In this document: positions 10,838 to 27,266 of the stretch, in pieces
Position numbering within the stretch: the stretch's first letter is position 1
Layout of the letters: every line of letters begins with the position of its first letter
Assembly (NCBI RefSeq): GCF_004138485.1
Contig: NZ_RYEV01000004.1
Span: 370,803 to 434,802, forward strand
Direction of reading: 5' to 3'
Origin: Peristeroidobacter soli
GTDB lineage: Bacteria; Pseudomonadota; Gammaproteobacteria; Steroidobacterales; Steroidobacteraceae
DNA length: 64,000 bases
Program-made: the position numbers and the translations under genes
The notes under the pieces: model-generated
Databases searched by the model: none
Seen by the model: only the letters and a program-made list of their open reading frames with translations
Told to the model about the DNA's origin: nothing

Positions 10838-11203
10838 TTAGCGTTTCGTATCGACCATTGGAGTCTTGCAGACCTCCGCTGCGTCGTCCTCGTCCGCTTC
10901 GCGCGGCGGGACCGGTGGCAACGCGACCACATTGGTGGCATCGGCGGGAATGTCCGGTCCGGCTGGCAACTCGAGGCCGCCCACCCGGGTATCTTTCAAC
11001 AATTGTTCGAGCTGCACCAGCTCGAGCACTTCGCGGATGTGCTTCGGGGAGCGTTTCAGCCAGCGCACGTAACCGAGCTTCTGTTCTTCGGTCACCTCCT
11101 CGGACCGAAGCACGACCAGCCAGTCGGCCGCCTGCTCACTGATCGACCTGGACCGACTGCTCGACTTGGACTTGGGCTTTCGTTTCTGGGGACGGTTAGG
11201 CAT
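10838..11203 (-). CDS. FecR N-terminal-like stub (DUF4880-type), possible soluble anti-sigma protein
   Basis: A 121-residue protein. After a Lys/Arg/Ser-rich start, residues about 20-70 ([36 protein letters not shown]) match the small helical DUF4880 domain that opens FecR proteins and binds sigma factors. The transmembrane helix and periplasmic FecR domain are absent; the rest is a proline- and acid-rich tail. It lies 134 bases downstream of an ECF sigma gene on the same strand, so it may be that factor's cytoplasmic partner. Alternatively it is a decaying FecR. The domain match is good; function is inference. Confidence 0.55.
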
Positions 11204-11337
11204 CCGTCATCCTCGCCAACGCGCAACGGCTCAGGTGCGACGGATTTTTATCGATCCCGCTCGCTCCTCCTCCCCAGCAAGCTAGACCGGACCATGATTG
11301 TGCATGGCCCTTGACATGGATGGGACGCGGATCTGCC

Positions 11338-11958
11338 TTATCCGACCTTTCTGCGCACGGGCTGCTGCGCGTCCAGATCCGGCGAGCCCAGATCCGAGCG
11401 CAATTCGGCATAAGCGCGAGCGATGTCTCTTCGCACGACACGCGGGGTCAACTTCAGTTTGGCGGCAATCTGCTTATACGTCAGATCCTCCCGGATGTGG
11501 AGTAGCAGCACCTGGCGTTGCCTCGGCGGCAACCGGTTGACCGCTTTACGGACGTGCAGGTTCACCAGGTCGTGCTCGACGGTGCTCTCCGGCTCGGCGT
11601 CCGGTTCGATCTGCAGGTCAGACAGCCAGACATCGTCGTGAGGCAGGCTGTTGCGTGCCCGCTCGCGCCATTCGTTGACGACGTTGGTCGCGATCCGGAA
11701 CAGATAACTCTGGGGATATTCGACGACCGCGTCGTCGCTGTACCGAAGCAACCGGAGGAAGACCTCCTGCGCCACGTCGTCCAGGTCCGCCGACTGCATC
11801 GAGGAGCGGCTGGACAACCAGCGTTTCATCGCGCCCCGCCAGCTCTCGAACCATTGGGTCAGACGCTCGTTGCGGCTTTGTGTATCGACGACGACTTCCC
11901 TGACTTCACCCTCTGTCGTGCTCTGGTCCATCGGGCAACGTTCGGGAATGGCGCTCAC
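11338..11958 (-). CDS. ECF-type RNA polymerase sigma factor
   Basis: A 206-residue sigma-70-family factor with region 2 (DLDDVAQEVFLRLLRYS, YPQSYLFRIATNVVNEWRER) and region 4 (RLPPRQRQVLLLHIREDLTYKQIAAKL, a helix-turn-helix). These short two-domain factors direct transcription of small regulons and are usually held by an anti-sigma protein. The start shown is GTG at 11958; ATG at 11931 is an alternative, and neither has a clear ribosome site. Downstream lies a FecR-like stub. A second, divergent ECF gene lies at 12278-12799. Confidence 0.85.
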   Translation of the reverse strand: MSAIPERCPMDQSTTEGEVREVVVDTQSRNERLTQWFESWRGAMKRWLSSRSSMQSADLDDVAQEVFLRLLRYSDDAVVEYPQSYLFRIATNVVNEWRERARNSLPHDDVWLSDLQIEPDAEPESTVEHDLVNLHVRKAVNRLPPRQRQVLLLHIREDLTYKQIAAKLKLTPRVVRRDIARAYAELRSDLGSPDLDAQQPVRRKVG

Positions 11959-12277: not shown

Positions 12278-12799
12278 ATGACCACCGCAGCCCCTGATAC
12301 CCGGCTCCCCTTCACTCTCGATGCCACGTCGTTCCGGACCTATGACAAGCAACTGCACCGTTTTCTGGCGCGCCGTTTGACGCAGCGCCAGGACGCGGAG
12401 GATCTGGCCCAGGAGGTTTATTTACGCTTGCTGCGGATCGACGCCGCCAAGAGCGTCCAGAAACCGGTCGCGTATGTTTTTGGAATTGCGTCCCATGTGG
12501 TCGCGGACTTCAAGAGAGGCGCGCGGCCGGGGTACGAGCGCCTCGAGGACCGCGAGGACGATTCGGACGAGCGCGCCAGCTCACCGGACGATCTGGCCGA
12601 CCGGTTGAATCTGCAACAGCAGCTCGAGCGCGCCTTCGCACGCCTGCCTCGCACGCACGCGATGGTCCTGATCGCGCACAAGCACTGCGGCCTGTCGTAT
12701 GAAGAGGTGGCCGCCGAGCTCGGGCTGAGCGTTCACACCGTCGAGAAGTACCTCACCCAGGCCAAGGCCGTCATCCGGACCATGACCTGGGAACGTTGA
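12278..12799 (+). CDS. ECF-type (FecI-like) RNA polymerase sigma factor
   Basis: A 173-residue sigma factor. Region 2 is seen in DKQLHRFLARRL and AEDLAQEVYLRLLRID, followed by VAYVFGIASHVVADFKR. Region 4 is RLPRTHAMVLIAHKHCGLSYEEVAAELGLSVHTVEKYL, whose wording is close to FecI-like factors. An acidic linker (EDREDDSDE) joins them. No FecR or TonB-receptor gene follows: three bases after its stop is the end of a convergent RAYT-like gene. It is therefore an orphan unless it works with the FecR-like stub at 10838-11203. Confidence 0.85.
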   Translation: MTTAAPDTRLPFTLDATSFRTYDKQLHRFLARRLTQRQDAEDLAQEVYLRLLRIDAAKSVQKPVAYVFGIASHVVADFKRGARPGYERLEDREDDSDERASSPDDLADRLNLQQQLERAFARLPRTHAMVLIAHKHCGLSYEEVAAELGLSVHTVEKYLTQAKAVIRTMTWER

Positions 12800-12802
12800 G
12801 GA

Positions 12803-13816
12803 TCAATACATCGCGTCCTGATCGGTGCCGCTGGCGTGTGCCGCGGACTGTCCCATTTCCAGGAAGTCCTCGCTCGAGACGGGGTGGCCGCCCAGCCCGA
12901 TCGGCATCATGTGCGACAGCGCGTCCAGCTTGAACAGATCCGGCTGCCGCTTCCGATACGAAGTGATGGTCTTGGACAGCGTCGAAGACACCCGGCCGAG
13001 ATAGCGAGAGATCTCCGCCAGCGTCGCGATACCCCGCACCGTCGTGTGCCAGGCGATCACCGCGCGAGCGAGCGCCAGTCTGCGCAAACGCGACTTCGAC
13101 AATACGTCCTCCCGCGTCACATCCAGCATCCGGCAGACATCGTGGATGATTTGATCCGGCGTCATGCGCGTCGATCGCTTCGGCCGATGACCCGCCGCCT
13201 CGGCCAGCTCCGGGCCGCCGAGAATGCCCGGCGTCTTGGGCATGCCCCGCTCCACCAGTTTCACCGACTCCGGCGTCGGCGCCTCGGCCATCAACCGCTG
13301 ATAGGCCGCCAGCTGCTCGTCACGCTTGCCCAGCAGTCGTCGAGCGGTGCCGCAATGGAGCCAGGGCACCTCACGCGCATTCGTGTATGCATGATGACTG
13401 GAGTACGCGAACTCCTCCGGCCGATCCGCCAGCCCCTTCAGCACCGGTACAAAATGGATGTAGTGGAGCAATGCCGTGAGATAGGTTTTCGGATCGATGA
13501 TCACCGAGTCATAACGAACCTGAAACAGATGCCCCCGCTCACCGAGCTTGCGTTGAATGCCGCGCGCATAGCGGCTCTTCACCCATTGCATGAAATGACC
13601 CAGCGAGATCTCATCGATCTGCACGGCCAGATATATGGCTTCGGTGGTCCAGCAGTAAGCGTGCAGCCGCGCGCCGGTACTACGCAGCGCCGCCTGCAAC
13701 ACCGATTCGAACAGTTCATAGTCCTCCGGCTGAGAGAAGATCGGACGCTGCCTGGTGCCGCGTTGGACGACATGATAAGTGCCGCCAGGAATGTGGATCC
13801 GTCGGCGATATGACAT
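12803..13816 (-). CDS. RAYT-like Y1-transposase protein with DnaA-C-type domain, HUH motif lost
   Basis: A 337-residue protein whose first 140 residues follow the REP-associated tyrosine transposase pattern (IPGGTYHVVQRG, GERGHLFQVRY, LLHYIHFVPV with Tyr119). Where the family has MPNHxHLLV this protein has TTEAIYLAV: both metal-binding histidines are replaced (Ala60 and Tyr62). The C-terminal part (about 210-290, including IIHDVCRML and EDVLSKSRLRRLALARAVIAW) resembles the DnaA C-terminal DNA-binding domain found in longer RAYTs. The frame is intact over more than 1 kb, so it is not simply decaying. It probably binds DNA but cannot cleave by the usual mechanism. No obvious flanking REP palindrome was seen. 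Confidence 0.75.
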   Translation of the reverse strand: MSYRRRIHIPGGTYHVVQRGTRQRPIFSQPEDYELFESVLQAALRSTGARLHAYCWTTEAIYLAVQIDEISLGHFMQWVKSRYARGIQRKLGERGHLFQVRYDSVIIDPKTYLTALLHYIHFVPVLKGLADRPEEFAYSSHHAYTNAREVPWLHCGTARRLLGKRDEQLAAYQRLMAEAPTPESVKLVERGMPKTPGILGGPELAEAAGHRPKRSTRMTPDQIIHDVCRMLDVTREDVLSKSRLRRLALARAVIAWHTTVRGIATLAEISRYLGRVSSTLSKTITSYRKRQPDLFKLDALSHMMPIGLGGHPVSSEDFLEMGQSAAHASGTDQDAMY

Positions 13817-15677: not shown

Positions 15678-16580
15678 GTGCGAATTGCAGTCATTCTGAG
15701 CACCTACAACGCGCCGCATAGATTGGCTCCGACACTCACCGGCTACGCCGCCCAGCGTGGCGCCGAGTTTGAGATCATCGTCGCCGACGACGGCTCGACC
15801 GATGCCACTCGCGAAGTCATCGAACAGGCCGCGCACACCTACGGCATCGTGATCCGTCGCGTGTGGCAACCCGATGCCGGTTTCCGTAAGTGTCGCATTC
15901 TGAATCAGGCCGCGATCGCGACCGATGCGGACTATGTGATTTTCTCGGACGGCGACTGCGTGCCACGCGCCGACTTCGTCGCAACTCACGCGGCACACGC
16001 ACGGCCGGGCCGCTTTCTCTCCGGCGGCTATTTCAAGCTGACCGATGAGACCAGCAAGCGGCTCACCCCGGAAGTCATCTTCAGCGGTCACGCCACCGAT
16101 CCTGAGTGGCTGCTCGCGAACGGCACGCCGCGCTCCGCCAGACTCGGCAAACTGCGCGCACGTGGCTGGCACGCCAAGCTCATGAATGCCATGACACCGA
16201 CGCGCCCGAGCTGGAACGGTCACAACTCATCGTGCTGGCGCAACGATCTGCTCGAGGTCAACGGACACGATGAGCGCATGGCTTACTGGGCGCAGGATCG
16301 TGAGTTCGGCGAACGCCTGGCCAACGCCGGCGTCACGGGCCTGCAGATCCGCTACTCGGCGATCTGCGTACACATCAATCACGACCGGCCCTACAAGACC
16401 GAACGCAGCCGCGAGCTCAACAAGCAGATCCGTGCCGAAACCAAAGCACGCCGTGCCACCTGGACCGAGCACGGCATTCTGAAAACGACGCAGCGACCCG
16501 ATAGCTTCGCGACCCGCCTGGAGAGCGACGTGATCGTGGCCACGTTTGGGGGATCGCTCTACCGCCGAAGCGCGGCTTGA
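15678..16580 (+). CDS. Family 2 glycosyltransferase with galactosyltransferase-type C-terminus
   Basis: A 300-residue GT-A protein: IAVILSTYNAPHRL at the N-terminus, EIIVADDGSTDAT, VIFSDGDCVPRADF with the DxD-like metal motif, and a C-terminal galactosyltransferase-like segment (SSCWRNDLLEVNGHDER, WAQDREFGERL). The start is GTG at 15678 because GAGGGAG lies eight bases upstream; the ATG at 15660 has no ribosome site. It runs in the same direction as the core-type transferase about 100 bases before it and probably acts on the same glycan, adding sugars to the LPS core or an O-chain. Convergent with the esterase gene at 16654. Confidence 0.83.
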   Translation: MRIAVILSTYNAPHRLAPTLTGYAAQRGAEFEIIVADDGSTDATREVIEQAAHTYGIVIRRVWQPDAGFRKCRILNQAAIATDADYVIFSDGDCVPRADFVATHAAHARPGRFLSGGYFKLTDETSKRLTPEVIFSGHATDPEWLLANGTPRSARLGKLRARGWHAKLMNAMTPTRPSWNGHNSSCWRNDLLEVNGHDERMAYWAQDREFGERLANAGVTGLQIRYSAICVHINHDRPYKTERSRELNKQIRAETKARRATWTEHGILKTTQRPDSFATRLESDVIVATFGGSLYRRSAA

Positions 16581-16653: not shown

Positions 16654-17631
16654 TCACAGCGTCAGCGCGAAACGCAGGCCGCGGCTGATCGTTGCGGGAA
16701 GGACGCTCAAATGGGTTTCGCGCTCGAAGACGATGACCTCGACCTCGCGACCGGCGGGGGCTTTGGCACTCTTGAGTCGGTCGCCCAGCGCGCGGACCTG
16801 GGTGACCATGCCGAAGGCGGTCAGCATCGCCTGCATCTGTTCGCGTGTCACGCCTGGGTACGTCTTCACATGGTCGGCCAGCTTCTCCTCATATTCCCCG
16901 GCGGTGAGCAGCACGCGAGGCGCGACTTTGCCGGCCGCCAGTAACTTCACGAGATTGGCTTCGTGCTTCAGGATCGCGCCTTCGTTCCAGTTGATCGACG
17001 GGCTGTTGACCAGATAGGTCTGGTAGGCCTCTGGATGATTGAACAGAACATGCAGCGCGAACAGCCCGCCGAAGGAATGCCCCCATAAAATGGTGTTGCG
17101 GCGGTCGATCGGGTAGGCGGCCTCGATCACTGGTCGCAACTCCTCGGTCAGAAAGCGGTGAAAGCCCTCGGCCTCCCCGTAAGTGGCGCCCTTCGTCAAT
17201 GGCGAGGCCTCCAGGGCAGCACGAGTGGCGGCATCGGGCCCGGTCGGAGTCAAGTCGGCGCAGCGCGTGCGCGACGCCGTCTGCCAATCCTTGCCGTAAC
17301 CGATGCCGACAACATAGGCGGGCTGAACTTCCAGGCCGATCCCCTGCATCATCACTGCATCGGCGGCGGTTTGGAAATTGAAATCGCCATCGGTGAGATA
17401 GATGACTGGATAGCTTTTGGCGGGCGCCCCCAACACCACCGGCTTGGCCACATAGATGCGATAGGTCCGGCCAGTGATCCTGGAGGTCATATCCCACTGT
17501 TCGGCGCTCGCGCGTACCACAGGGGAACGACTCGGCGCCTCAGCGCGCGCCGTCGCTGCGTTGAAGCCAGCCGTACTCAACGCAGCCGTCAGCCCCACAC
17601 CTGACATCAAAAACTCTCGTCGTGCAACCAT
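16654..17631 (-). CDS. Exported alpha/beta-hydrolase esterase (Fes/IroE-like, PF00756 type)
   Basis: A 325-residue hydrolase. The N-terminus ARREFLMSG followed by a hydrophobic stretch and ATARAEA is a twin-arginine-like signal peptide, so it should act in the periplasm. YPVIYLTDGDFNFQ, GIGYGKDW and the nucleophile elbow GHSFGG are typical of the esterase-D/siderophore-esterase family; a His near the C-terminus (ERETHLSV) completes the triad. ATG at 17631 is chosen because GGAAGGA precedes it. It is the last gene of a minus-strand row that begins with FecI, FecR and a TonB receptor, 37 bases after the fusion hydrolase. It may cleave an ester in the imported substrate. Confidence 0.82.
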   Translation of the reverse strand: MVARREFLMSGVGLTAALSTAGFNAATARAEAPSRSPVVRASAEQWDMTSRITGRTYRIYVAKPVVLGAPAKSYPVIYLTDGDFNFQTAADAVMMQGIGLEVQPAYVVGIGYGKDWQTASRTRCADLTPTGPDAATRAALEASPLTKGATYGEAEGFHRFLTEELRPVIEAAYPIDRRNTILWGHSFGGLFALHVLFNHPEAYQTYLVNSPSINWNEGAILKHEANLVKLLAAGKVAPRVLLTAGEYEEKLADHVKTYPGVTREQMQAMLTAFGMVTQVRALGDRLKSAKAPAGREVEVIVFERETHLSVLPATISRGLRFALTL

Positions 17632-17668
17632 TCCGCGTTCCTTCCTGCTGCTCATTGCAAACTTCATC

Positions 17669-20600
17669 TCAAATATCACCAGGTGCCGCGGGCCGGCACG
17701 GCTGCATCGGCAGCGAGCCACACTCTGGCGCCGGCGCTTGAGCGCTCTCGCCGGGCACCACGGGCAGACTCAACATCGAGCGATGGCGACTGGAGTGATA
17801 GACCTTGTTAATCGATGGTCCGCCCGAGGGCACACTGCCCATGACGGGGGAGGGAATTGGATTGGGTGCGAGAATCGACAGCTGGAGTCGATGGCCCTTG
17901 CGCACCACGTGGCCAATGGCGCCCAATGACAATTTGATCTCGTAGATCTTCCCGGGAACCAGCTTTTCGTGCCGTCGGAATGAGTGAGCGATGTAGTCCG
18001 GCGTGGTGCGGCTCGGATCGATCCTGCGCAGCGACGCTCGCAGGTACGCCCGTTGTAGAAACAAGGTGTCGCCACGGGCATCGATGTCCTTCAAAGTGAA
18101 CAGGAAGTCCGTGTCCCGCTGATCCGAACTGAAGTAGAACGTCAGGATGGGGGTTCCCAACAGCGCCAGATCTTCGCTCATGACCTCCGTCTCATAGTTG
18201 AGCGAGCCAATCGGCAGCGGAGCCAGCGCAAAGTGTTCGTTACTCCCAACCAGCTCCGTGCCCATGGGATACACGTAGCTACGAATGCCTTGCTCGTCGC
18301 TCGACGGCGGCGGCTCTCGGGTCAGCTCACCACTGCCCGTCAAATAGAGCGCCTGCCGCTGCAGTCCAGGAACCGGCCAGCTCGGGTAGCTCGTGCTCCA
18401 ACCCGAGGATCCGCTGCCGCCGTGCTCCCAATTGATGAGCACGGGCGGTTCGTTTTCGACGCCGTTCTTCTCTCCTTTCACCCAACGGTCGAACCAACGG
18501 ATCAGGCGCGGTGTCGACGATGCATCTCCATGGCCCCCGTTCTGTACGACGAGCCGCTTGTTCTCGCCGCTCAATCGCTCGAACAGCCGCAGAGCGCCAT
18601 CGGGCATGTCCCATGGGTCCTGCCAGGTCTGTTGTATCAGCGTGGGGACTCGAACTTGATGCACGGTATTTTCGAGGGCTCGGCTCTCCCACCACCGATC
18701 TTGCAAAGGGTGCGCGAGAACATCTCGATAGAAGCTGGTCTCGGCGGGGCGTGTGGCGCGGATCGCGGTGCATTCCGTATCGCCTCCCTGGATGCGAGCC
18801 TCCGCGCCGGCCCGCGCCACCTTCGGTTGCAGGTCGAAGGTCCAGCTCGCCGCCTCGCCCAGATGAATCATTCCACCGGCCGTCGCGCCCTCTTCTCGAT
18901 ACAAACTGCCGGCGATGGCGGTCGGTGCGATGGCTTTCAAGTGCGGAGGCCGTCGAGCCGCCACTGCAAGCTGACTCATGCCTGCGTTGGAACCGCCAAA
19001 CATTCCGATATTTCCATTGCTCCACGGTTGTGCCGCGGCCCACTCCACTACCTCCGCGCCGTCCGGCGCTGCCTGAGGATCGAGGAAACTGTAGCCGTCC
19101 CCCTCCGAGCATCCCGTGCCTCGCGCGTTGACGCCGAGGACGGCATACCCCGCTTCGAGAAACTCTTTGGCGCGATTGAATGGCAGACCGCCGGCGTTGT
19201 ATTCGCTGTAGGTGAGCAGCGTTGGATAACGCCTTTCTTTGCCGGGTCGCCAGAGGACGTGCGCGAGCCGGGTGCCATCCTTCAATGAGATGTACCCATA
19301 TTCACGGTACGCATCCGCTTCCGAGAACGTTTGTTCCGCGATCCACTGGTCGACGCGCCGTTCGAGCAAGTCGAGCGGCATCTGGCCGCGACCGAGAATC
19401 GTGTCGTGGAAGCCGCGAATGTCGAACTTGCTACCGAGCCGCTCCTCGGCCCGCCTGCGCAGTTCCAGAATCTTGATCATGCCGATCTTGTAGCCAGTCG
19501 CCTGCCCCGGCGCGATGATGTACCGCTGCACCTCGGCTCGGATCTGTCGTTCGGCGGCCGGCGAATTCTCGCTGAAATATTTCACCGACTGCGCCTCGGT
19601 CCAGCCCTTCGAATGCAGCCCGGTGTCGATCACCAGTCGGATCGCGCGCCAGATCTCGGCACTCAGCCGACCGAAGTCGGAATAAGGATCGCGGTATGCG
19701 CCCATCTCCTTCGCGAGCTGCTCCGTGTACAGTCCCCAGCCTTCCTGATAGGCATTGATGGATAGATATTTGCGAAATTTCGGAATGTCCGTCAGCTCGC
19801 TGGCGATCGCGAAGTTCAGGTGATGACCGGGCAGCGCTTCGTGATACGCGATCACCTCCAGCTGGGGGATGGGCATTGCATGCATGTCCGAGAGATGCGC
19901 GTAGTACACGCCCGGCCGTGAGCCGTCCGCTGCCCCTATGAAATATTCCTGAGGCGCGCCCGGGATCTCGCGATACGCCTCGACGCGCTTCACGATCACA
20001 TCGGCCTTGGGCAGGATGCCGAAGTACCTGGGCAACTGCTGCTTCATGAAGGCGATGTGCGCCGTGGCGGCGTCGATATACGCTTGCCGTCCGACATCCG
20101 TGTTTGGATAGTAGAAGCGCGGATCGTCACGCACGAATTTGAAGAATTCCTGCAGCGTGCCCGCGAAGCCGACCTGTTGCTTGATCCGCTCCATCTCGCC
20201 TTTGATGCGTGCGACTTCGTCGAGACCGAGCTGATGCACCTGGGCCGGCGTCAGCCTGGTCGTGGTCGAGCTGGCGAGCATCGCCTCATAGAAGGCCTGG
20301 CCGTTCGGATGCTTGCCGACGCCGGTCGCGATCGTATCGGCTTTGGTCAGTTCGGACTCGAACCAGGCGATCACTCGATCGTAGGCCGGCTGCCACTGCG
20401 CCAGCAGCGCCTTGCGCGCGCTGAGCTTGTAGGCTGCGGCTCTGGCGGAATCGATCTTGCCGGTCCTGACCAACCCGTCCACCTTGGCCTGAATGTCGGT
20501 CCACACGGCGCTGTCGCCTTCGCCACCGAACGGTGCGCCCGTGATCAGCGCGCGGGCCTGCAGGATCATCGCCTCATAGGAAAAGCGTGGCACTCGCGAT

Positions 20601-21127
20601 CCAGCCGCCGCATTTTTCCTGGCGATGTCGAGAAGCTGGAGCTGTGCACGCGCGACACCACCGATGCGCGCGATATAGGCATCCATGTCCGCCGGCTCGT
20701 CGACGCGATGAACCTGCATCAGGAACTGCGGAATCCGAGTGTGCGGTCCGAGCAGTTGGTTGAAGACGTAGACGTTGCGCTTGAACCGGGCGAGCGACGC
20801 GGCATCCTGGTACTGGTAAACCCAGAGATCGTACGAAAGCTGCGCATCCGGCGGCAGCTTCGCCCGATCGAATTTCGCCCGCAGCTCTTCGACCGACTTG
20901 CGCTGCCATTCCAAGGCCCGATCCGCCGCCGCTTCGGACAGGTCGTCGATCTTGTCATAGTCCTTCTTCTCGCCCGCATAGGCGCGAGCCATCGGACTCA
21001 GATCGAGCTGTTCCTCATACTTCGCATCGAACCACGCGTTGATGCGTGCGGTCTCCTCTTGCGCCGCCGACGCGCTGGCAAATGCCAGCAGCGACGCGCC
21101 AATGAACCACGCCTTGGAAATATCCAT
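17669..21127 (-). CDS. DUF885 metallopeptidase-like :: CocE/NonD-type serine hydrolase fusion
   Basis: One uninterrupted 1152-residue frame carrying two enzymes. After a signal peptide (DISKAWFIGASLLAFASASAAQ), residues about 25-585 form a DUF885 protein with the zinc motif HEALPGHH (429-436) and the downstream YQEGWGLYTEQL glutamate. Residues about 590-1140 form a CocE/NonD (X-Pro dipeptidyl-peptidase S15-like) hydrolase: DGTRLAHVLWRP, ARGTGCSEG, the nucleophile loop GGSNAG (Ser713), WQDPWDMPDGA and NGGHGD for the Asp and His. Families of this kind are normally separate proteins of about 550-600 residues. The ATG overlaps the stop of the upstream gamma-glutamyltransferase gene (TGATG), implying translational coupling. 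Likely periplasmic peptide or amino-ester cleavage; substrate unknown. Confidence 0.85.
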   Translation of the reverse strand: MDISKAWFIGASLLAFASASAAQEETARINAWFDAKYEEQLDLSPMARAYAGEKKDYDKIDDLSEAAADRALEWQRKSVEELRAKFDRAKLPPDAQLSYDLWVYQYQDAASLARFKRNVYVFNQLLGPHTRIPQFLMQVHRVDEPADMDAYIARIGGVARAQLQLLDIARKNAAAGSRVPRFSYEAMILQARALITGAPFGGEGDSAVWTDIQAKVDGLVRTGKIDSARAAAYKLSARKALLAQWQPAYDRVIAWFESELTKADTIATGVGKHPNGQAFYEAMLASSTTTRLTPAQVHQLGLDEVARIKGEMERIKQQVGFAGTLQEFFKFVRDDPRFYYPNTDVGRQAYIDAATAHIAFMKQQLPRYFGILPKADVIVKRVEAYREIPGAPQEYFIGAADGSRPGVYYAHLSDMHAMPIPQLEVIAYHEALPGHHLNFAIASELTDIPKFRKYLSINAYQEGWGLYTEQLAKEMGAYRDPYSDFGRLSAEIWRAIRLVIDTGLHSKGWTEAQSVKYFSENSPAAERQIRAEVQRYIIAPGQATGYKIGMIKILELRRRAEERLGSKFDIRGFHDTILGRGQMPLDLLERRVDQWIAEQTFSEADAYREYGYISLKDGTRLAHVLWRPGKERRYPTLLTYSEYNAGGLPFNRAKEFLEAGYAVLGVNARGTGCSEGDGYSFLDPQAAPDGAEVVEWAAAQPWSNGNIGMFGGSNAGMSQLAVAARRPPHLKAIAPTAIAGSLYREEGATAGGMIHLGEAASWTFDLQPKVARAGAEARIQGGDTECTAIRATRPAETSFYRDVLAHPLQDRWWESRALENTVHQVRVPTLIQQTWQDPWDMPDGALRLFERLSGENKRLVVQNGGHGDASSTPRLIRWFDRWVKGEKNGVENEPPVLINWEHGGSGSSGWSTSYPSWPVPGLQRQALYLTGSGELTREPPPSSDEQGIRSYVYPMGTELVGSNEHFALAPLPIGSLNYETEVMSEDLALLGTPILTFYFSSDQRDTDFLFTLKDIDARGDTLFLQRAYLRASLRRIDPSRTTPDYIAHSFRRHEKLVPGKIYEIKLSLGAIGHVVRKGHRLQLSILAPNPIPSPVMGSVPSGGPSINKVYHSSRHRSMLSLPVVPGESAQAPAPECGSLPMQPCRPAAPGDI

Positions 21128-22827
21128 CAGTAGCCGACCACCCGTCCGCCCATCGCCAGTTCGCGGATCGCGCCTCCCTGCAGCTCGCCGCTCTTCGAGT
21201 CGATTTGCACGCCGATCCAATAACCGCGCATCTGATCGTTCTCGACCAATGGCTGTCCGAGCCGGCCCACCTCGGCGATGAACTCAGGCTTGAATTCGTT
21301 CTTGCCAACGGTGAGCACCGCGCCACCGTCCGCGTCGAAGCTGAAGCCACCGAGGCTCGGCTCGTCGATCGCCCGTTGTGGTGTCATGCCGAAATCCAGA
21401 ACGTTGATGAGCGCCGTCACCGTGCGTGAATGCAAGCCGGCACCGATGGCACTGAACCCCATGAACGGTTTGCCCTTCGCGACCACGAGGCCCGGGCTGG
21501 TCTGGTCCGGCAGTCGCTCGCCCGGAGTGAGTTTCGCGATCTCGGCGCGCTGAAACGACGCGGAGTCCGGGATGGAAACGCCCGCCACGTTGATGCCCGT
21601 CGCTCCCCAGCTCACGGCATTGATCGAGTGGCAGATCGCCGCGATGTTGCCCCACTGATCGATCGAGACGATGGCGTCCGAATGCGCGGGTACCGACGGA
21701 ATCGCCGGCACCCTCGGCATCCGTCCAGAGCGCATGACGTCCCACAGCTTCACCGCGGATTCCTTTTTTGCTCGTGCTGCCAACGACCGATCCAAGCCGA
21801 GCGATTCGAAGATCTTCGGATCCATGGACACAAAGTCGAACAGCTCCGCGGGCTTGAGGATCTGTGCGAGCGTGAACGTCGCCTGGGGTGATTGCGCGTA
21901 CCGGCCCAGCTTTGCGACATTCGATACATCCGCCAGATTCATCGCCTCGACCAGACCGACGCCGCCGGTGGCGGGCGCGCCGGGCACGTAGATGTCGTAA
22001 CCGTGGTAGCTCGCATGCATCGGCTCGGTCCACATGACCTGGTAGCTCGCCAGATCGTCGAGCGTCATGCGACCGCCGTCGCGTTGCAGGGCCGCGATGA
22101 ATTGCTTCGCCCATTCACCGCGGTACATATAGTCCGCACCATGCAGGGAGACCTGGCGCAACGTTTTTGCGAGCGCCGGTTGTTTGAATGTTTCTCCCGG
22201 TTGATAGGCCGTGCCATCGGCCTTGGTGAAGACTGCTCTGGTCTCGGGCAGACGACTCAGCACATCTTTGCGAAACGCATATTGCGCGGCGAGCCCGGGA
22301 TTCCATTCGACTCCCTGCTCCGCGCAGCGAATGGCCGGCTCGAACACCTTTGCGAAAGGCAGCTTGCCGAACCGCCTCTGAGCGGCGTCCACGCCCGCCA
22401 TGAAGCCCGGCACCAATGCGGTCCGTCCACTCGGTGGATAGCTGCCATTGCGCAGATCCTTGAGCAGTTCGGTCAGATCGACGCCAGGCATCGCCATGGC
22501 ATCGGTCTCCGCCTTGACCGTGTTATATGCTGCGTTGAGGTTATAGATCTTCCCCGTGGCAGCGTCGAAATACATCATCGTCATGATGCCGGCATAGCTC
22601 ACCCACGAGCCCGCGGCCATGCAGACCTGCGTAAGCGCAGTCGCCACGGCCGCGTCCGCAGCGCTGCCGCCAGCCTTCAATATCTCGATGCCTCCCTCGA
22701 TGGCGGCCGAACCGGTGGTGGCCGTGATCATGCCGTGGTGAGCAGGCACCGGATTCGCCGTATCCGCAGCCTGCACTATTGACGAGGCAACACTCATTCC
22801 GAGCAAAAGCAGTGAGCACCTGCGCAT
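21127..22827 (-). CDS. Gamma-glutamyltransferase-like exported hydrolase (divergent, Ser nucleophile)
   Basis: A 566-residue protein with a signal peptide (RRCSLLLLGMSVASSIVQA) and the GGT fold: GMITATTGSAAIEGGIEIL, GGSAADAAVATAL, and the autoprocessing region. In place of the canonical TTHYSVVD it reads SDAIVSID, so the predicted N-terminal nucleophile is Ser383 instead of Thr; the following GN and SIN positions are kept. GGTs are Ntn hydrolases that self-cleave and remove or transfer gamma-glutamyl groups in the periplasm. The divergence suggests another amide substrate. The gene lies 25 bases after a TonB receptor and is coupled to the fusion hydrolase gene. Confidence 0.82.
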   Translation of the reverse strand: MRRCSLLLLGMSVASSIVQAADTANPVPAHHGMITATTGSAAIEGGIEILKAGGSAADAAVATALTQVCMAAGSWVSYAGIMTMMYFDAATGKIYNLNAAYNTVKAETDAMAMPGVDLTELLKDLRNGSYPPSGRTALVPGFMAGVDAAQRRFGKLPFAKVFEPAIRCAEQGVEWNPGLAAQYAFRKDVLSRLPETRAVFTKADGTAYQPGETFKQPALAKTLRQVSLHGADYMYRGEWAKQFIAALQRDGGRMTLDDLASYQVMWTEPMHASYHGYDIYVPGAPATGGVGLVEAMNLADVSNVAKLGRYAQSPQATFTLAQILKPAELFDFVSMDPKIFESLGLDRSLAARAKKESAVKLWDVMRSGRMPRVPAIPSVPAHSDAIVSIDQWGNIAAICHSINAVSWGATGINVAGVSIPDSASFQRAEIAKLTPGERLPDQTSPGLVVAKGKPFMGFSAIGAGLHSRTVTALINVLDFGMTPQRAIDEPSLGGFSFDADGGAVLTVGKNEFKPEFIAEVGRLGQPLVENDQMRGYWIGVQIDSKSGELQGGAIRELAMGGRVVGY

Positions 22828-22852
22828 CGATAACCCCTACGGAACGAAAGAC

Positions 22853-25264
22853 TCAGCGGAAGCGGTAGCTCATGTTCAGGCCGACCGTGCGCGGGCGCGG
22901 TCTCGCGGTCGGCAGAGCCAGGCCATTGACCACGCCGGCGACGGACATGGCTGCGTTCTCGTCAGTGAGATTGTCGCCAAACAGGTAGATCCCCCACGAT
23001 TGCCCTTCCGCGCCGAGCCGTGTACCGAGCAGCGTCACGTCATCCGACGGTGCGAGATTGTTGATGAGATCGACCTGGTCGGAGGTGTATTGGGCCTGCC
23101 CGAACACGAACGCATCGAGCGTGGCTGTCAGTGGCCAGCGATAAGTTGCCGACGCGGCCAGCGTGTTTTCCGGGACTCTGGTAACACGGTCGCCCTTGCG
23201 AACATTTACGCCCGCGTCCGCTTCGGTGTATTCCGCCTCCACGTGGCTGGCCGAGAGCTGCAGATTCAAGCCTTCGATCGGTTGCGCCGAGAGACTGAGC
23301 TCCGCGCCGATGGTCCGGGCCGCCGCGCCATTCTGCAGGGCACTCAACTGCGTCACCGGTTCGACGACGACGTTGAGCATCAGGTTCCGCCAGTCGTTGT
23401 AATAGACCGCAGCCTCGACGGACGCGCGACCAGCAGCGAACGTACCTTTGGCGCCGAGCTCATAGCTCCACACGATCTCCTCTTCGATGCCCACCGGTAT
23501 GTCCATCCCGATCAGCGCCGCGGATATGAGCGATACCGTGGGCTGAACCTGACCGGCGCGAAAGCCCTTGGCAACGTTGGTGTACAGCAGCCAATCGTCG
23601 CTCACATGCCATGCCAGGTTCAGACGCGGATTGAGGGTGTCGATGGAGCTCTCGACGCGTCCGGTGAAACTCGGATCGATGGTCTGAATGAGCGCGAGCG
23701 TCGCCGGATCGATCGGATCCGCGCGCAGGCGATCGTCCTTGAAGTAGCGCAGTCCCAAGGTGAGGTCGAGCTTGCGATCGAGCAGCGGCCAGGTGCCTTC
23801 GCCGAAGACCGCATAGGACTCGCTCTGCGCATACTCCCCGAAATTCAGGCCGAGGACCTGGGCAGTGACCGGGCGTTCGATCTTTCGGTAGAAGAGTCCG
23901 CCGGTCCAGCGAAACCCGCCATCGTTGGATGAAGTCAGTCGCAACTCCTCCGAGCGCACCTCTTGCGTCTGATCGCTGAGCACGGGCAGGCCCAGCAACG
24001 TGCCGGCGTTGAACAGACTGAAATCCATGTACGAGGTGGCACTCACCAGATCGGCGAAACCCAGGTCGTAGCGCACCGTCAGGCTGTACAGGTCGTACGC
24101 CATGTCGTTGCTGACCGGCGTGAGATCCGTCGTCTGATTTTCGTAGGCGCCGTTGGAACCGGCCGCTTCCGAGTCGGTGCGCCAGAACGACAGGATCACA
24201 TCCAGCCTGTCATTCGGCGCCAGCCGCAGCTTGCCGCGATAGGTGTCGATGCTGCGCTCGTTCTCATCCGCAACGCCCGTCGCAATGTTGTCGGTCCAGC
24301 CGCCGATATCTTCTTGTGAAGCCACCAGGCGCAGCGCCGCTTTGCCTGCCACGATCGGCAGATTGAGCATGCCTTTGGCCGCCCAGCTGTCCTCGCCGTG
24401 CTCGGTCGATGCGATCGTGAGATCGACGTCGCTCTGCAGATTGCTCAAGTTGGGCTCGGCCGTGAGCACGCGAATCGTGCCACCGAGGGAACCGTCGCCG
24501 TACAGCGTGCCCTGCGGGCCTCGCAGCACCTCGACCCGCTCCAGATCGAACGTGCGTACATCCGGCACCACGGGCTGGGAGATGAAACTGAATGGCAGCT
24601 CGTCGAGGTAGTAGCCGATCGGCGCGTCGCCGAACGTCGAATTGATGCCGCGGATCTGGATGCTCTGTGTTCCGGCCTGCGTATCGACGATGCTGACGCC
24701 GGGCGCCGCCTGCAAAAAATCGGCGAGCTGCACCGAGCCTTGCTCGCGCATTCTGTCGCTGGTGAAAGCGGTGATCGACTGCGGCACATCGAGGATGCGC
24801 TCGGCGCGCTTGGTCGCGGTGACGATGATCTCCTCGACGGCAAAGTGCTTCTCGGATTCCGAGGCAGCCGCACCCGCCTCATTTGTCGATCTACCGCCAG
24901 GCGCGCCGGACTGGGTCACCCACGTCGCCGATGTCCGCACAGCGGCGCTGACGATCAGCAAACCGGACTCACCGGTACGCACCCTCAACCCGGACCCGCC
25001 CAACAATCGATCCAGCGCGTCGCGAGTCGTGAATTCCCCCTTCACGGCGACGCTGCGCTTTCCCTTGACGGCCTCGTCCTCGAACACCACCTGCTGCAAC
25101 GATGCCCGCGCGAAGGCTCGCAGAGCCGAGTCCAATTCCTGGGCGGGAATGTCGAACGCTTGCAGCTGCTCTCGTGCAACAGCCTGCGACGGATGAGTAG
25201 TGATCGATACGGCGAGCGTCGCGCAACTCAGCAAGATCGAGCGGCAACATTCTTTGAGCATCAT
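22853..25264 (-). CDS. TonB-dependent outer-membrane receptor with STN signalling domain
   Basis: An 803-residue FecA-type receptor. After a signal peptide, residues about 35-110 form an STN domain (FDIPAQELDSALRAFARAS, ALDRLLGGSGLRV), which contacts FecR. A TonB box (EEIIVTATKR) and a plug domain (VPQSITAFTSDRM, QIRGINSTFGDAPIG, VEVLRGPQGTLYGDGSLGG) follow, then a 22-strand barrel ending in aromatic residues (LNMSYRFR), as needed for outer-membrane insertion. It lies directly after fecR and before the hydrolase genes, so ligand binding should both import a compound and switch on FecI. The STPR-like plug wording resembles Caulobacter-type receptors for sugars or peptides instead of classic siderophore receptors. 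Ligand unknown. Confidence 0.92.
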   Translation of the reverse strand: MMLKECCRSILLSCATLAVSITTHPSQAVAREQLQAFDIPAQELDSALRAFARASLQQVVFEDEAVKGKRSVAVKGEFTTRDALDRLLGGSGLRVRTGESGLLIVSAAVRTSATWVTQSGAPGGRSTNEAGAAASESEKHFAVEEIIVTATKRAERILDVPQSITAFTSDRMREQGSVQLADFLQAAPGVSIVDTQAGTQSIQIRGINSTFGDAPIGYYLDELPFSFISQPVVPDVRTFDLERVEVLRGPQGTLYGDGSLGGTIRVLTAEPNLSNLQSDVDLTIASTEHGEDSWAAKGMLNLPIVAGKAALRLVASQEDIGGWTDNIATGVADENERSIDTYRGKLRLAPNDRLDVILSFWRTDSEAAGSNGAYENQTTDLTPVSNDMAYDLYSLTVRYDLGFADLVSATSYMDFSLFNAGTLLGLPVLSDQTQEVRSEELRLTSSNDGGFRWTGGLFYRKIERPVTAQVLGLNFGEYAQSESYAVFGEGTWPLLDRKLDLTLGLRYFKDDRLRADPIDPATLALIQTIDPSFTGRVESSIDTLNPRLNLAWHVSDDWLLYTNVAKGFRAGQVQPTVSLISAALIGMDIPVGIEEEIVWSYELGAKGTFAAGRASVEAAVYYNDWRNLMLNVVVEPVTQLSALQNGAAARTIGAELSLSAQPIEGLNLQLSASHVEAEYTEADAGVNVRKGDRVTRVPENTLAASATYRWPLTATLDAFVFGQAQYTSDQVDLINNLAPSDDVTLLGTRLGAEGQSWGIYLFGDNLTDENAAMSVAGVVNGLALPTARPRPRTVGLNMSYRFR

Positions 25265-25327
25265 CGTCGGTTCTCCCCGGTCCTGCCGTTGCTCGGCAGT
25301 GTTATCGGGTAGAACGCACCAGGGTCG

Positions 25328-26395
25328 CTAGCGGACAGTGGCGCTCGAATCTATTTTTGTAGCGACCGCGTGCAGCACCCGTCGGTCCGGGCGACGCTCG
25401 ACCTGGACCGGAAAGAACGTCGTCACACCCTCGATGAAGGCATCGATATCGCCGGCGGCGAACACTCCGCTGATGCTGAAGGCAGCGACCTGAGCATCAC
25501 CCAGTTCCAGCTGCTCCTTGGAATAGCGGTTCATCCGTTCCACCGCCGAGAGCAACGGCTCGTTGACGAAATTGAGCTGTCCGGCCTCCCAGGACAGCGA
25601 CCGGGGCGCATCCGTCGGTAGAATTTTTGCCGTCGATCCGGCAGCTGCAACCAGCTCTCGGCCTGGTACGAGCGTGCGCTCTGGAGCCGCGAGACTCTCA
25701 TCGAAGCGTAGCGGCCGCGGCTCGGCCACAGCGTCGACGTGCTCCAGCACCTCGATGCGACCTTCATATAGAACGACGCGGACCTCTTCGCGCAGACGTT
25801 CGACGCTGAAGCTGGTGCCGACCGCGACGACCACCTTGCCTTCCGCCTCCACACTGAATGGACGCAACGGATTCTTGGCGACGTCGAACTTTGCCCGCCC
25901 GGAGAGCAGCTCCAGCTTGCGACGCTCGTCAGTGAAACGCACCTCGACGCGAGTCGCCGCGTCCAGTGACAACTTCGATCCGTCATCGAGCACCGCGACG
26001 CGCCGCTCGCCGATGCCGGTCTCGTAAACCTGAACCCTATCGCCCATCCAATAGACCGCACCGCAGATTGCCAGCACCAGCGCTGCCGCCAGACCCGCCG
26101 GCCAACGCCACCCATCGGAGAATCGCTTCGCCCAGCGGCGGCTGTTCGCCTGTCGGAAGCTCTCCAGCGCCTGGCCACGAGCGCGAATCAATTCCGGTTG
26201 ATCGTCGAGCCCCTCCAGCCCTTGCCAGACCGCGACCGCATCTGCAAAGGCTTCGCGGTGGCCGGCATGCGACAACCATGCGTCGAAGTCCCGCTGTTCC
26301 GCGGACGTGAGTCGCCCCTCCGCCATGCGCATGCACCAGGCTACGGCCTCTTCGTCCCTGCCCTCCGGGAGCTCCTGGTCAAAGCCGTTGCTCAT
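25328..26395 (-). CDS. FecR-family anti-sigma/sigma-regulator
   Basis: A 355-residue inner-membrane protein with the full FecR plan: N-terminal DUF4880 (EEAVAWCMRMAEGRLT, FDAWLSHAGHREAFADAV), one transmembrane helix near residue 95 (LAAALVLAICGAVYWMG), the FecR core (RRVAVLDDGSKLSLDAATRV, LLSGRAKFDVAKNPLRPF) and a C-terminal DUF4974-like domain that meets the receptor STN domain. It relays receptor occupancy to the sigma factor. Its ATG overlaps the stop of the sigma gene (ATGA), so the two are coupled. The TonB receptor starts 63 bases downstream. Confidence 0.92.
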   Translation of the reverse strand: MSNGFDQELPEGRDEEAVAWCMRMAEGRLTSAEQRDFDAWLSHAGHREAFADAVAVWQGLEGLDDQPELIRARGQALESFRQANSRRWAKRFSDGWRWPAGLAAALVLAICGAVYWMGDRVQVYETGIGERRVAVLDDGSKLSLDAATRVEVRFTDERRKLELLSGRAKFDVAKNPLRPFSVEAEGKVVVAVGTSFSVERLREEVRVVLYEGRIEVLEHVDAVAEPRPLRFDESLAAPERTLVPGRELVAAAGSTAKILPTDAPRSLSWEAGQLNFVNEPLLSAVERMNRYSKEQLELGDAQVAAFSISGVFAAGDIDAFIEGVTTFFPVQVERRPDRRVLHAVATKIDSSATVR

Positions 26396-26988
26396 CGGAA
26401 GTCCCTCACCTGAGCCATCAACATCGCCATCGCCTTCATCACATGTTTCTTGACCGCGCTCTTGGAGATGCCGAAGCTGCGAGCAATCGTATCCAGCTCC
26501 AGATTCTCGATACGATAAAGAATGAAAATGGAACGAGTGCGTTCCGGGAGCGCGTCCAGCCCGGTGATGAAAGCCCCGAGCGCATCGCGAGCGGCAACGA
26601 CACGCGACGGATCCAGCCGTTCCGCATCCTGCTCATCGAGCAGCACTGCGTCCCGCAGATACTCCATCCGAACCTTGCTCCGGCGCGCACCGTCCCGAAG
26701 CAGGTTCATGGCGACCTGAAAAATGTAGCTATCCGGGGATTGGCTCGGCCGCCCGCCATCCGTCAGCAGCCGGGCGAACACCTCCTGAGTCAGATCCTCC
26801 GCCTCAGCGTGGTTGCGCACCCGGCGCAAAAAGAACGACATCAGCGCCGGGCGCCAGCGGCGGTTGAGGTGGTTCGAGTCACTTGCTGCCTGCTGAGACA
26901 CGATTGCGACGCCGTCGGAAACCCGCCCATTTTGAACGAACGCTCGTTGAGCAGTGTAAGACGCACCAGCGCAGCGCGCGGACAGCAC
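26392..26988 (-). CDS. FecI-type ECF sigma factor
   Basis: A sigma factor of up to 198 residues. Region 2 is RNHAEAEDLTQEVFARLL and SPDSYIFQVAMNLLRDGARR; region 4 is ALPERTRSIFILYRIENLELDTIARSFGISKSAVKKHVMKA. It belongs to the iron-starvation/FecI group that serves TonB receptors with STN domains. The start is uncertain: GTG 26988 is the longest reading, GTG 26901 would give 168 residues, closer to family length, and neither has a strong ribosome site. First gene of the FecI-FecR-receptor-hydrolase row. Confidence 0.88.
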   Translation of the reverse strand: MLSARCAGASYTAQRAFVQNGRVSDGVAIVSQQAASDSNHLNRRWRPALMSFFLRRVRNHAEAEDLTQEVFARLLTDGGRPSQSPDSYIFQVAMNLLRDGARRSKVRMEYLRDAVLLDEQDAERLDPSRVVAARDALGAFITGLDALPERTRSIFILYRIENLELDTIARSFGISKSAVKKHVMKAMAMLMAQVRDFR

Positions 26989-27190: not shown

Positions 27191-27266
27191 TGGCGTCCCC
27201 ACGGGGATTCGAACCCCGGTTACTACCGTGAAAGGGTAATGTCCTAGGCCTCTAGACGATGGGGAC
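27191..27266 (-). tRNA. tRNA-Glu (anticodon TTC)
   Basis: A 76-base cloverleaf including encoded CCA. Acceptor GTCCCC pairs with GGGGAC, the anticodon loop reads CTTTCAC with TTC, and the T-arm is GGGGTTCGAATCCCC. It closely resembles E. coli tRNA-Glu. It lies 185 bases beyond the 3' end of gltX, which charges it. Confidence 0.97.

What the first reader, a model, noticed from the sequence alone, without database searches (positions are those of the whole stretch)
16654..26988. FecI/FecR/TonB-receptor operon dedicated to degrading an imported peptide- or ester-containing compound
Seen: on one strand, with overlaps or short gaps, lie a FecI sigma factor, FecR, a TonB receptor with STN domain, a gamma-glutamyltransferase-like Ntn hydrolase, a DUF885::CocE fusion and a Tat-type esterase. 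Known: FecIR/STN receptors sense their own ligand. Inference: the ligand is imported and then dismantled in the periplasm by amide, peptide and ester hydrolysis. The logic resembles the lasso-peptide isopeptidase loci of proteobacteria, but with a different enzyme set. I know of no described system with these four parts.
Basis: partly seen in the sequence, partly recalled or inferred. Interest (0 to 1): 0.75.

Follow-up and report, generated by a model that had tools for sequence, protein, structure and literature searches.

The report
Self-sensing receptor operon with periplasmic hydrolases
A bacterium carries an outer-membrane receptor that probably senses and imports a peptide-like compound and is followed by export-signalled enzymes to break it down; the layout is a variant of known receptor operons, but the mix of enzymes, including a two-enzyme fusion that arose twice in this genome, looks new.

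Summary
The six genes are real and lie as described, with two start sites corrected. The hydrolases keep plausible catalytic residues and, by eye, export signals. Its parts do recur together. A 10-row receptor clade (support 99/98) has DUF885 nearby in 7 of 10 loci and a GGT-like gene in 3 of 10, though three loci were fetched for those enzymes. In it, receptors beside FecI/FecR have a detected or likely STN domain, and receptors beside an AraC-type gene have none. The same genome holds a second receptor operon with the same two enzyme families fused in the opposite order; both halves have separate origins. The GGT-like protein has a Ser nucleophile and lacks the arginine of E. coli GGT. The esterase belongs to the siderophore-esterase family, so a siderophore remains a live rival. 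The genome has 104 FecR matches, so the FecIR/receptor layout itself is ordinary here. Import and periplasmic breakdown of a peptide-like compound is the best account; the substrate is unknown.

The parts
26392..26988 (-). FecI-type ECF sigma factor
   Evidence: Sigma70_r2 and r4_2 over cut-off; overlaps FecR by 4 bp
25328..26395 (-). FecR-type sigma regulator (DUF4880 + FecR)
   Evidence: the one NCBIfam model listed is ferric citrate FecR, below its cut-off
22853..25264 (-). TonB-dependent receptor with STN signalling domain (residues 58-106), Plug and barrel
   Evidence: in a 10-row receptor clade, support 99/98
21127..22827 (-). GGT-like Ntn hydrolase with signal-peptide-like start and Ser nucleophile (Ser383; codon 21679-21681)
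   Evidence: PF01019; Ser invariant in 8 of 8 aligned rows and at the start of a strand in the AF2 model, pLDDT 82; full-length GGT-fold matches
17669..21127 (-). DUF885::CocE/S15 fusion hydrolase, 1152 aa, signal-peptide-like start
   Evidence: PF05960, PF02129, PF08530; continuous frame
19352..20995 (-). DUF885 half (HExxPGH ... EGWxxY putative zinc peptidase site; His429, Glu430, His435, Glu462)
   Evidence: these residues invariant in 19 of 19 aligned rows; AF2 pLDDT 91, matches solved DUF885-type structures 3o0y, 3iuk, 3u24
17861..19279 (-). CocE/S15 half (Ser713, Asp837, His866, Tyr643 aligned with cocaine esterase residues whose roles are recalled)
16654..17667 (-). IroE/PfeE/bacillibactin-esterase-type serine esterase with Tat-like motif RREFL
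   Evidence: PF00756; best PDB 2qm0 E 5e-46, PfeE 6gi0 E 1e-25; start chosen

Best explanation
This is a self-regulated uptake-and-breakdown operon for a peptide-like compound that probably holds an ester or an unusual amide bond. The receptor binds the compound outside the cell. Its STN domain signals through FecR to free FecI, which switches on the receptor and the genes behind it. The compound is imported and cut in the periplasm by the GGT-like amidase, the DUF885 putative metallopeptidase joined to a CocE-type hydrolase, and a Tat-exported esterase. Shown here: gene content and order, export-signal-like starts, plausible catalytic residues, the receptor clade's repeated association with DUF885 and GGT-like genes, and two independent fusions of the same two enzyme families. 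Inferred: ligand sensing, co-transcription, periplasmic action on one substrate, and the chemical class of that substrate.
For: Families and catalytic residues. Receptor clade of 10 rows, support 99/98, with DUF885 nearby in 7 of 10 loci and a GGT-like gene in 3 of 10. Of the 7 relatives found by receptor sequence, 5 have DUF885 within 10 kb, against 3-6% per locus expected from DUF885 density (5 of 7 would have p about 2e-5 if independent, which they are not). In ten own-genome regions 25 receptor-like calls (24 distinct, fragments included; one is the clade member of L096) had no DUF885 and no GGT-like gene. Two DUF885/CocE fusions in opposite orders, both in FecIR-STN operons, with independent origin of both halves. 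GGT-like relatives lie in an unbroken same-strand run with a receptor in 3 of 5 other loci (L092, L116 and the out-of-class L153). Enzymes scanned in sister loci include M19, M3, S41, S9, DPP-IV type, M81 and erythromycin esterase.
Against: The six-gene set was seen in no other genome. The DUF885 genes beside the sister receptors are distant from the window's, so the link is between families, not orthologues. Four of the five DUF885-bearing receptor relatives are one inherited cluster; by lineage and without the window it is 2 of 4 (p about 0.02, grouping chosen after seeing the data). L091, L114 and L116 were fetched because they hold DUF885 or GGT. In L114 the GGT-like genes are 9 kb from the receptor with opposite-strand genes between, and its DUF885 is on the other strand; in L115 the receptor-type gene is 5 kb away on the other strand. 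The receptors of L092 and L153 are outside the clade or were not placed. The esterase family points equally to siderophores. No expression data exist.
Confidence: 0.5

Rival explanations
1. It is a xenosiderophore uptake operon: the receptor imports a ferric siderophore with ester and amide bonds, and the esterase and amidases break it in the periplasm to release iron, as PfeE does for enterobactin.
For: The esterase's best solved relatives are bacillibactin esterase (named BES in the entry), PfeE and fungal siderophore esterases. PfeE lies next to the receptor gene pfeA and acts in the periplasm (PMC8001512, passages). FecI/FecR/STN systems are best known for iron carriers (PMC9249621, passages). 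The receptor's top NCBIfam hit is TonB-siderophore, below cut-off.
Against: No iron-related gene among the neighbour proteins that were scanned, which are only part of each locus. Sister loci carry M19, M3, P450, an MFS transporter and erythromycin esterase. The receptor is too far from any solved siderophore receptor to tell (best E 7e-22).
Confidence: 0.2
2. It is an ordinary nutrient-peptide scavenging cassette, one of many in this genome, with broad hydrolases and no special ligand.
For: 104 FecR matches in the genome; S8 or S9 peptidases in several fetched cassettes.
Against: DUF885 and GGT-like genes occur in this receptor clade's loci but not in the ten control regions; the GGT-like subfamily has a Ser nucleophile, lacks the E. 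coli Arg114 equivalent and keeps its own conserved residues, which suggests a particular acyl group.
Confidence: 0.18
3. It is a detoxification operon that destroys an antibiotic-like peptide or macrolactone entering through the receptor.
For: Erythromycin-esterase-type and beta-lactamase-family proteins lie in sister loci; a GGT-fold cephalosporin acylase and LmbA2991 are structural relatives of the GGT-like protein.
Against: A cell gains little by inducing the receptor that lets a poison in; beta-lactamase-family (PF00144) proteins are often esterases or peptidases (recalled).
Confidence: 0.07

Closest known systems
FecI/FecR/FecA and FpvI/FpvR/FpvA cell-surface signalling systems
   Same: sigma factor, sigma regulator and STN receptor together (PMC9249621, passages)
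   Different: no iron gene seen in the operon; four exported-type hydrolase domains in three proteins follow the receptor
Lasso-peptide isopeptidase loci (AtxE2, SpI-IsoP, BenE)
   Same: receptor with sigma/anti-sigma pair and a peptide-cutting enzyme (PMC9266682, passages)
   Different: no S9 isopeptidase in the operon, no lasso-type family among the 20 window proteins scanned; DUF885::CocE, Ser-type GGT and IroE-type esterase instead
PfeA/PfeE enterobactin piracy system
   Same: receptor gene plus an esterase of the same family with an export signal
   Different: PfeE is under a two-component system (PMC8001512, passages); here FecIR and further hydrolases
Gamma-glutamyltransferases and GGT-fold acylases (E. 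coli GGT, Bacillus halodurans cephalosporin acylase, LmbA2991)
   Same: whole fold
   Different: Ser nucleophile; no Arg at the E. coli Arg114 place
TonB receptor-linked carbohydrate scavenging (Xanthomonas CUT loci, Bacteroides PULs)
   Same: receptor plus matching degrading enzymes (PMC1790865 seen as search listing and start of abstract only; the rest recalled)
   Different: amidase, peptidase and esterase families; no glycosidase or SusD family in the operon

Membership tests
FecI/FecR/STN-receptor signalling system | sigma factor, FecR and STN receptor adjacent on one strand | tested here: met
FecI/FecR/STN-receptor signalling system | receptor ligand induces the operon | not testable with these tools
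   needs expression data
Lasso-peptide isopeptidase locus | S9 prolyl-oligopeptidase-type isopeptidase with beta-propeller | tested here: not met
   none of the six operon proteins has it; the Peptidase_S9 hit of the esterase is below cut-off and without a propeller
Lasso-peptide isopeptidase locus | precursor, B protease and cyclase nearby | tested here: inconclusive
   14 further window proteins (4, 10) gave no such family; small precursor ORFs and the rest of the window were not searched with lasso models
Lasso-peptide isopeptidase locus | receptor and FecI/FecR pair | tested here: met
Gamma-glutamyltransferase (true GGT) | GGT fold and PF01019 | tested here: met
Gamma-glutamyltransferase (true GGT) | Thr nucleophile | tested here: not met
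   Ser in the window and in its five closest aligned relatives; Thr in own-genome L144, L145, L147
Gamma-glutamyltransferase (true GGT) | Arg at E. coli position 114 (role recalled) | tested here: not met
   no Arg at the aligned place in the 6 HS-type rows; Arg in own L145, but Thr-type L144 and L147 also lack it
Gamma-glutamyltransferase (true GGT) | NCBIfam equivalog score | tested here: not met
   TIGR00066 190.1 bits against a cut-off of 357.85
IroE/PfeE/BES siderophore esterases | sequence family with candidate catalytic Ser and His | tested here: met
IroE/PfeE/BES siderophore esterases | iron regulation | tested here: inconclusive
   no Fur box of E. coli type
SusC/SusD-type utilisation locus | SusD-like lipoprotein beside the receptor | tested here: not met
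   no SusD among the six operon proteins

The most novel reading that the evidence does not exclude
This receptor clade defines a proteobacterial counterpart of polysaccharide utilisation loci for modified peptides (depsipeptides, isopeptides or acylated peptides). Locus by locus it exchanges its regulator (FecIR with an STN domain, or AraC without one) and its hydrolase set, and it has twice gone with fusion of a DUF885 peptidase to a CocE-type hydrolase. The Ser-type GGT-like enzyme would be an isopeptidase or acylase of new specificity.
Probability: 0.33. Interest if true: 0.65.

Novelty: new variant of a known kind. Interest (0 to 1): 0.45.

Why it matters
DUF885 has solved structures, but its Pfam entry still says unknown function. 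Two independent fusions with CocE-type hydrolases, both behind sister receptors, suggest that the two activities work on one substrate, which makes the function of DUF885 directly testable. The receptor clade also offers a natural comparison of how an outer-membrane receptor changes its regulator along with its signalling domain. The Ser-type GGT subfamily is a candidate source of amidases with new specificity.

Tried and rejected
Rejected: one conserved six-gene system; a single fusion event followed by domain swapping (AU tests); true GGT activity; lasso isopeptidase membership.

Led nowhere: Fur-box scan; promoter and terminator scan; receptor against solved structures, too distant to name a ligand; fold search of DUF885 beyond its own family, nothing significant, oligoendopeptidase F only at rank 9 with E 0.29; fusion relatives in plasmids, 0 of 466 matching records cover 80% of the query in one place; CocE half at phylum level, 1 of 398 genomes, our own; receptor at class level, 1 of 369, our own. 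Limits of these searches: only a few candidates per genome were scored (6, 3), and the genome's own reversed fusion did not reach the threshold, so diverged fusions elsewhere would have been missed. Literature: searches (DUF885, 13 papers, one opened for one passage; 0 papers; 20 papers, two opened for passages; 11, none opened; 1, not opened; 9, one opened for passages; 14, one opened for passages; 15, 8 listed; 4), of which one was opened for passages.

Rows dropped: DUF885 pieces under 430 aa, receptors under 580 aa and CocE proteins under 400 aa were left out; L002 was dropped as a duplicate of L091 and L118's receptor as a duplicate of L091's. One search used 21 of 91 DUF885 rows; one search used 18 of 20 CocE rows, leaving out two long branches. 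In both the pair tested was named after the larger tree had been seen. The control regions L093-L102 were taken for FecR matches, but I already knew that L101 held a CocE gene, so no control is claimed for CocE (L101 and L102 each have one). One receptor is counted twice in the 25 calls because two regions overlap, and three calls are fragments under 1000 bases.
Full report
What is there. Six genes lie on the minus strand between 16654 and 26988, with a tRNA-Glu gene upstream (27191-27266) and a convergent glycosyltransferase downstream (15678-16580). Pfam confirms each. Spacing is that of an operon. The fusion is better started at 21127 and the esterase at one of the ATGs 17631-17667. By eye, the receptor, GGT-like protein and fusion begin with Sec-type signal peptides and the esterase with a Tat motif; no signal-peptide program was run.

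The enzymes. The GGT-like protein matches whole GGT-fold structures at 19-23% identity. In six rows (the window and its five closest relatives in the set) the nucleophile is Ser in an HS[DA] motif, and no Arg stands at the place of E. coli Arg114. Own-genome L145 keeps both Thr and Arg; L144 and L147 keep Thr but not Arg (role of Arg114 recalled). The Ser is invariant in 8 of 8 aligned rows and opens a strand in the model (pLDDT 82). DUF885 has an invariant HExxPGH...EGWxxY pattern in 19 of 19 rows. Its model (pLDDT 91) matches only three solved proteins of its own family with significance. A passage in PMC12572635 files DUF885 in a zinc-peptidase clan marked by HExxH; the motif here is longer, so zinc peptidase is an inference. 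The CocE half aligns with cocaine esterase at Ser, Asp, His and Tyr (roles recalled). The esterase's nearest solved relatives are BES (2qm0, E 5e-46), PfeE and fungal siderophore esterases.

How common the layout is. This genome has 104 FecR matches at E 1e-5, 102 at 1e-12. Of 14 genomes of the genus one other is comparable, G198 with at least 150; the other twelve have 0-29. So a FecI/FecR/receptor cassette is an ordinary unit here. In ten own-genome regions picked for FecR, 25 receptor-like calls (24 distinct, three of the 25 short fragments, one the clade receptor of L096) had no DUF885 and no GGT-like gene. Of the 8 proteins scanned from those regions, 4 were S9 and 2 S8 peptidases.

Conservation. 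The six-gene set was seen nowhere else. In 217 genomes of the family the GGT-like gene reaches E 1e-100 in 4, the receptor 1e-110 in 6 and the CocE half 1e-45 in 5; the first two lists share only this genome. Below those thresholds G131 and G198 have a clade receptor and a GGT-like gene in one locus. None of the four other CocE matches is fused to DUF885 as far as frame lengths show (405-659 aa); diverged fusions would be missed, as the genome's own second fusion was in that call. 74 DUF885 relatives had no CocE and no GGT-like match in the DNA held; 45 of them had flanks of up to 10 kb, 29 about 1.5 kb.

The receptor clade. A tree of 28 receptors puts the window's in a 10-row clade with support 99/98. 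Partners: Window: GGT, DUF885::CocE, esterase. L119, L120, L121, L122 (four genomes, three genera): one or two DUF885 and alpha/beta hydrolases; scanned members were MFS, M19, M3 and erythromycin esterase in L121, P450 and erythromycin esterase in L120, and erythromycin esterase in L122. L091: tricorn-type S41, CocE::DUF885, beta-lactamase-family protein, amidohydrolases. L096: ABC-2 permease with M1 peptidase, and an esterase. L123: S9 peptidase on an 8.5-kb contig. L114: two GGT-like, S9, DPP-IV type, beta-lactamase-family and M81, with DUF885 on the other strand. L116: beta-lactamase-family and GGT-like. DUF885 is thus in 7 of 10 and GGT-like in 3 of 10. L091, L114 and L116 were fetched for their enzymes. 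Of the seven relatives that the receptor search returned, five have DUF885; four of these are one inherited cluster. Density predicts 3-6% per locus. By lineage and without the window it is 2 of 4, p about 0.02. The DUF885 genes beside L119-L122 are far from the window's in the tree.

GGT-like relatives. Of five other loci, L092, L116 and the out-of-class L153 have one or more GGT-like genes in an unbroken same-strand run with a receptor; in L114 they are 9 kb apart with opposite-strand genes between; in L115 the receptor-type gene is on the other strand 5 kb away. L092's receptor falls outside the 10-row clade and L153's was not placed.

Regulators. Pfam finds STN in the window's receptor, L091 and L096, all beside FecI/FecR. 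L123 also lies beside FecI/FecR; Pfam gave no STN at E 1e-4, though its N-terminus aligns with the others'. Receptors L114, L116, L119 and L122 gave no STN, and L120 and L121 align only from about the plug on; all six lie with an AraC-type gene (HTH_18: L114; L121; L116, L119, L122; L120). The direction of change was not tested.

Two fusions. The same genome has a 1205-aa protein with the domains reversed (S15, PepX_C, DUF885) in a FecI-FecR-amidohydrolase-receptor-S41 run. Holding the two DUF885 halves together costs 257 log-likelihood units (p 3e-8), the two CocE halves 278 units (p 1e-9). The window's DUF885 groups with a Parvularculaceae protein without a CocE match in its flanks, and its CocE with plasmid genes of Microvirga, Sinorhizobium and Novosphingobium; the Sinorhizobium one lies near a Xaa-Pro peptidase and a peptide ABC transporter. 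Two independent fusions of the same families behind related receptors suggest that the two activities serve one substrate.

Reading. Import and periplasmic breakdown of a peptide-like compound is the best account. A siderophore with ester and amide bonds is the main rival because of the esterase family. The closest layout in print that I saw is that of lasso isopeptidase clusters, described with a receptor and sigma/anti-sigma pair in PMC9266682 (passages; see also PMC11006600, passages); the enzymes differ. No title or start of abstract listed describes this gene set (one search listed none); most of those papers were not opened, and the library is open-access only.

Noticed in passing
whole genome G000; G198: 104 FecR matches in the window's genome and at least 150 in G198 of the same genus, against 0-29 in the other twelve genus members searched: a very large expansion of cell-surface signalling.
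   Followed up: partly
window 10838-11931, minus strand: A sigma factor followed by a 121-aa protein with only the DUF4880 domain of FecR, and no receptor called next to it; a second sigma factor runs the other way at 12278-12799.
   Followed up: no
window 12803-13816, minus strand: IS200-like Y1 transposase with a C-terminal DnaA-type DNA-binding domain.
   Followed up: no
L069 and L070 (G116, G061): A receptor followed by one long frame with two DUF885 stretches in tandem.
   Followed up: partly
L096:6839-10399: ABC-2 permease fused to an M1 peptidase, between two TonB receptors in a FecIR locus.
   Followed up: no
L094:8898-12029 and L098:6935-10153: Subtilase-domain (S8) proteins of over 1000 aa in FecIR/receptor regions.
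   Followed up: no
L114 (G131): GGT-like pair, DUF885, DPP-IV type, beta-lactamase-family and M81 (the family of microcystin-degrading MlrC, recalled) around one receptor.
   Followed up: partly
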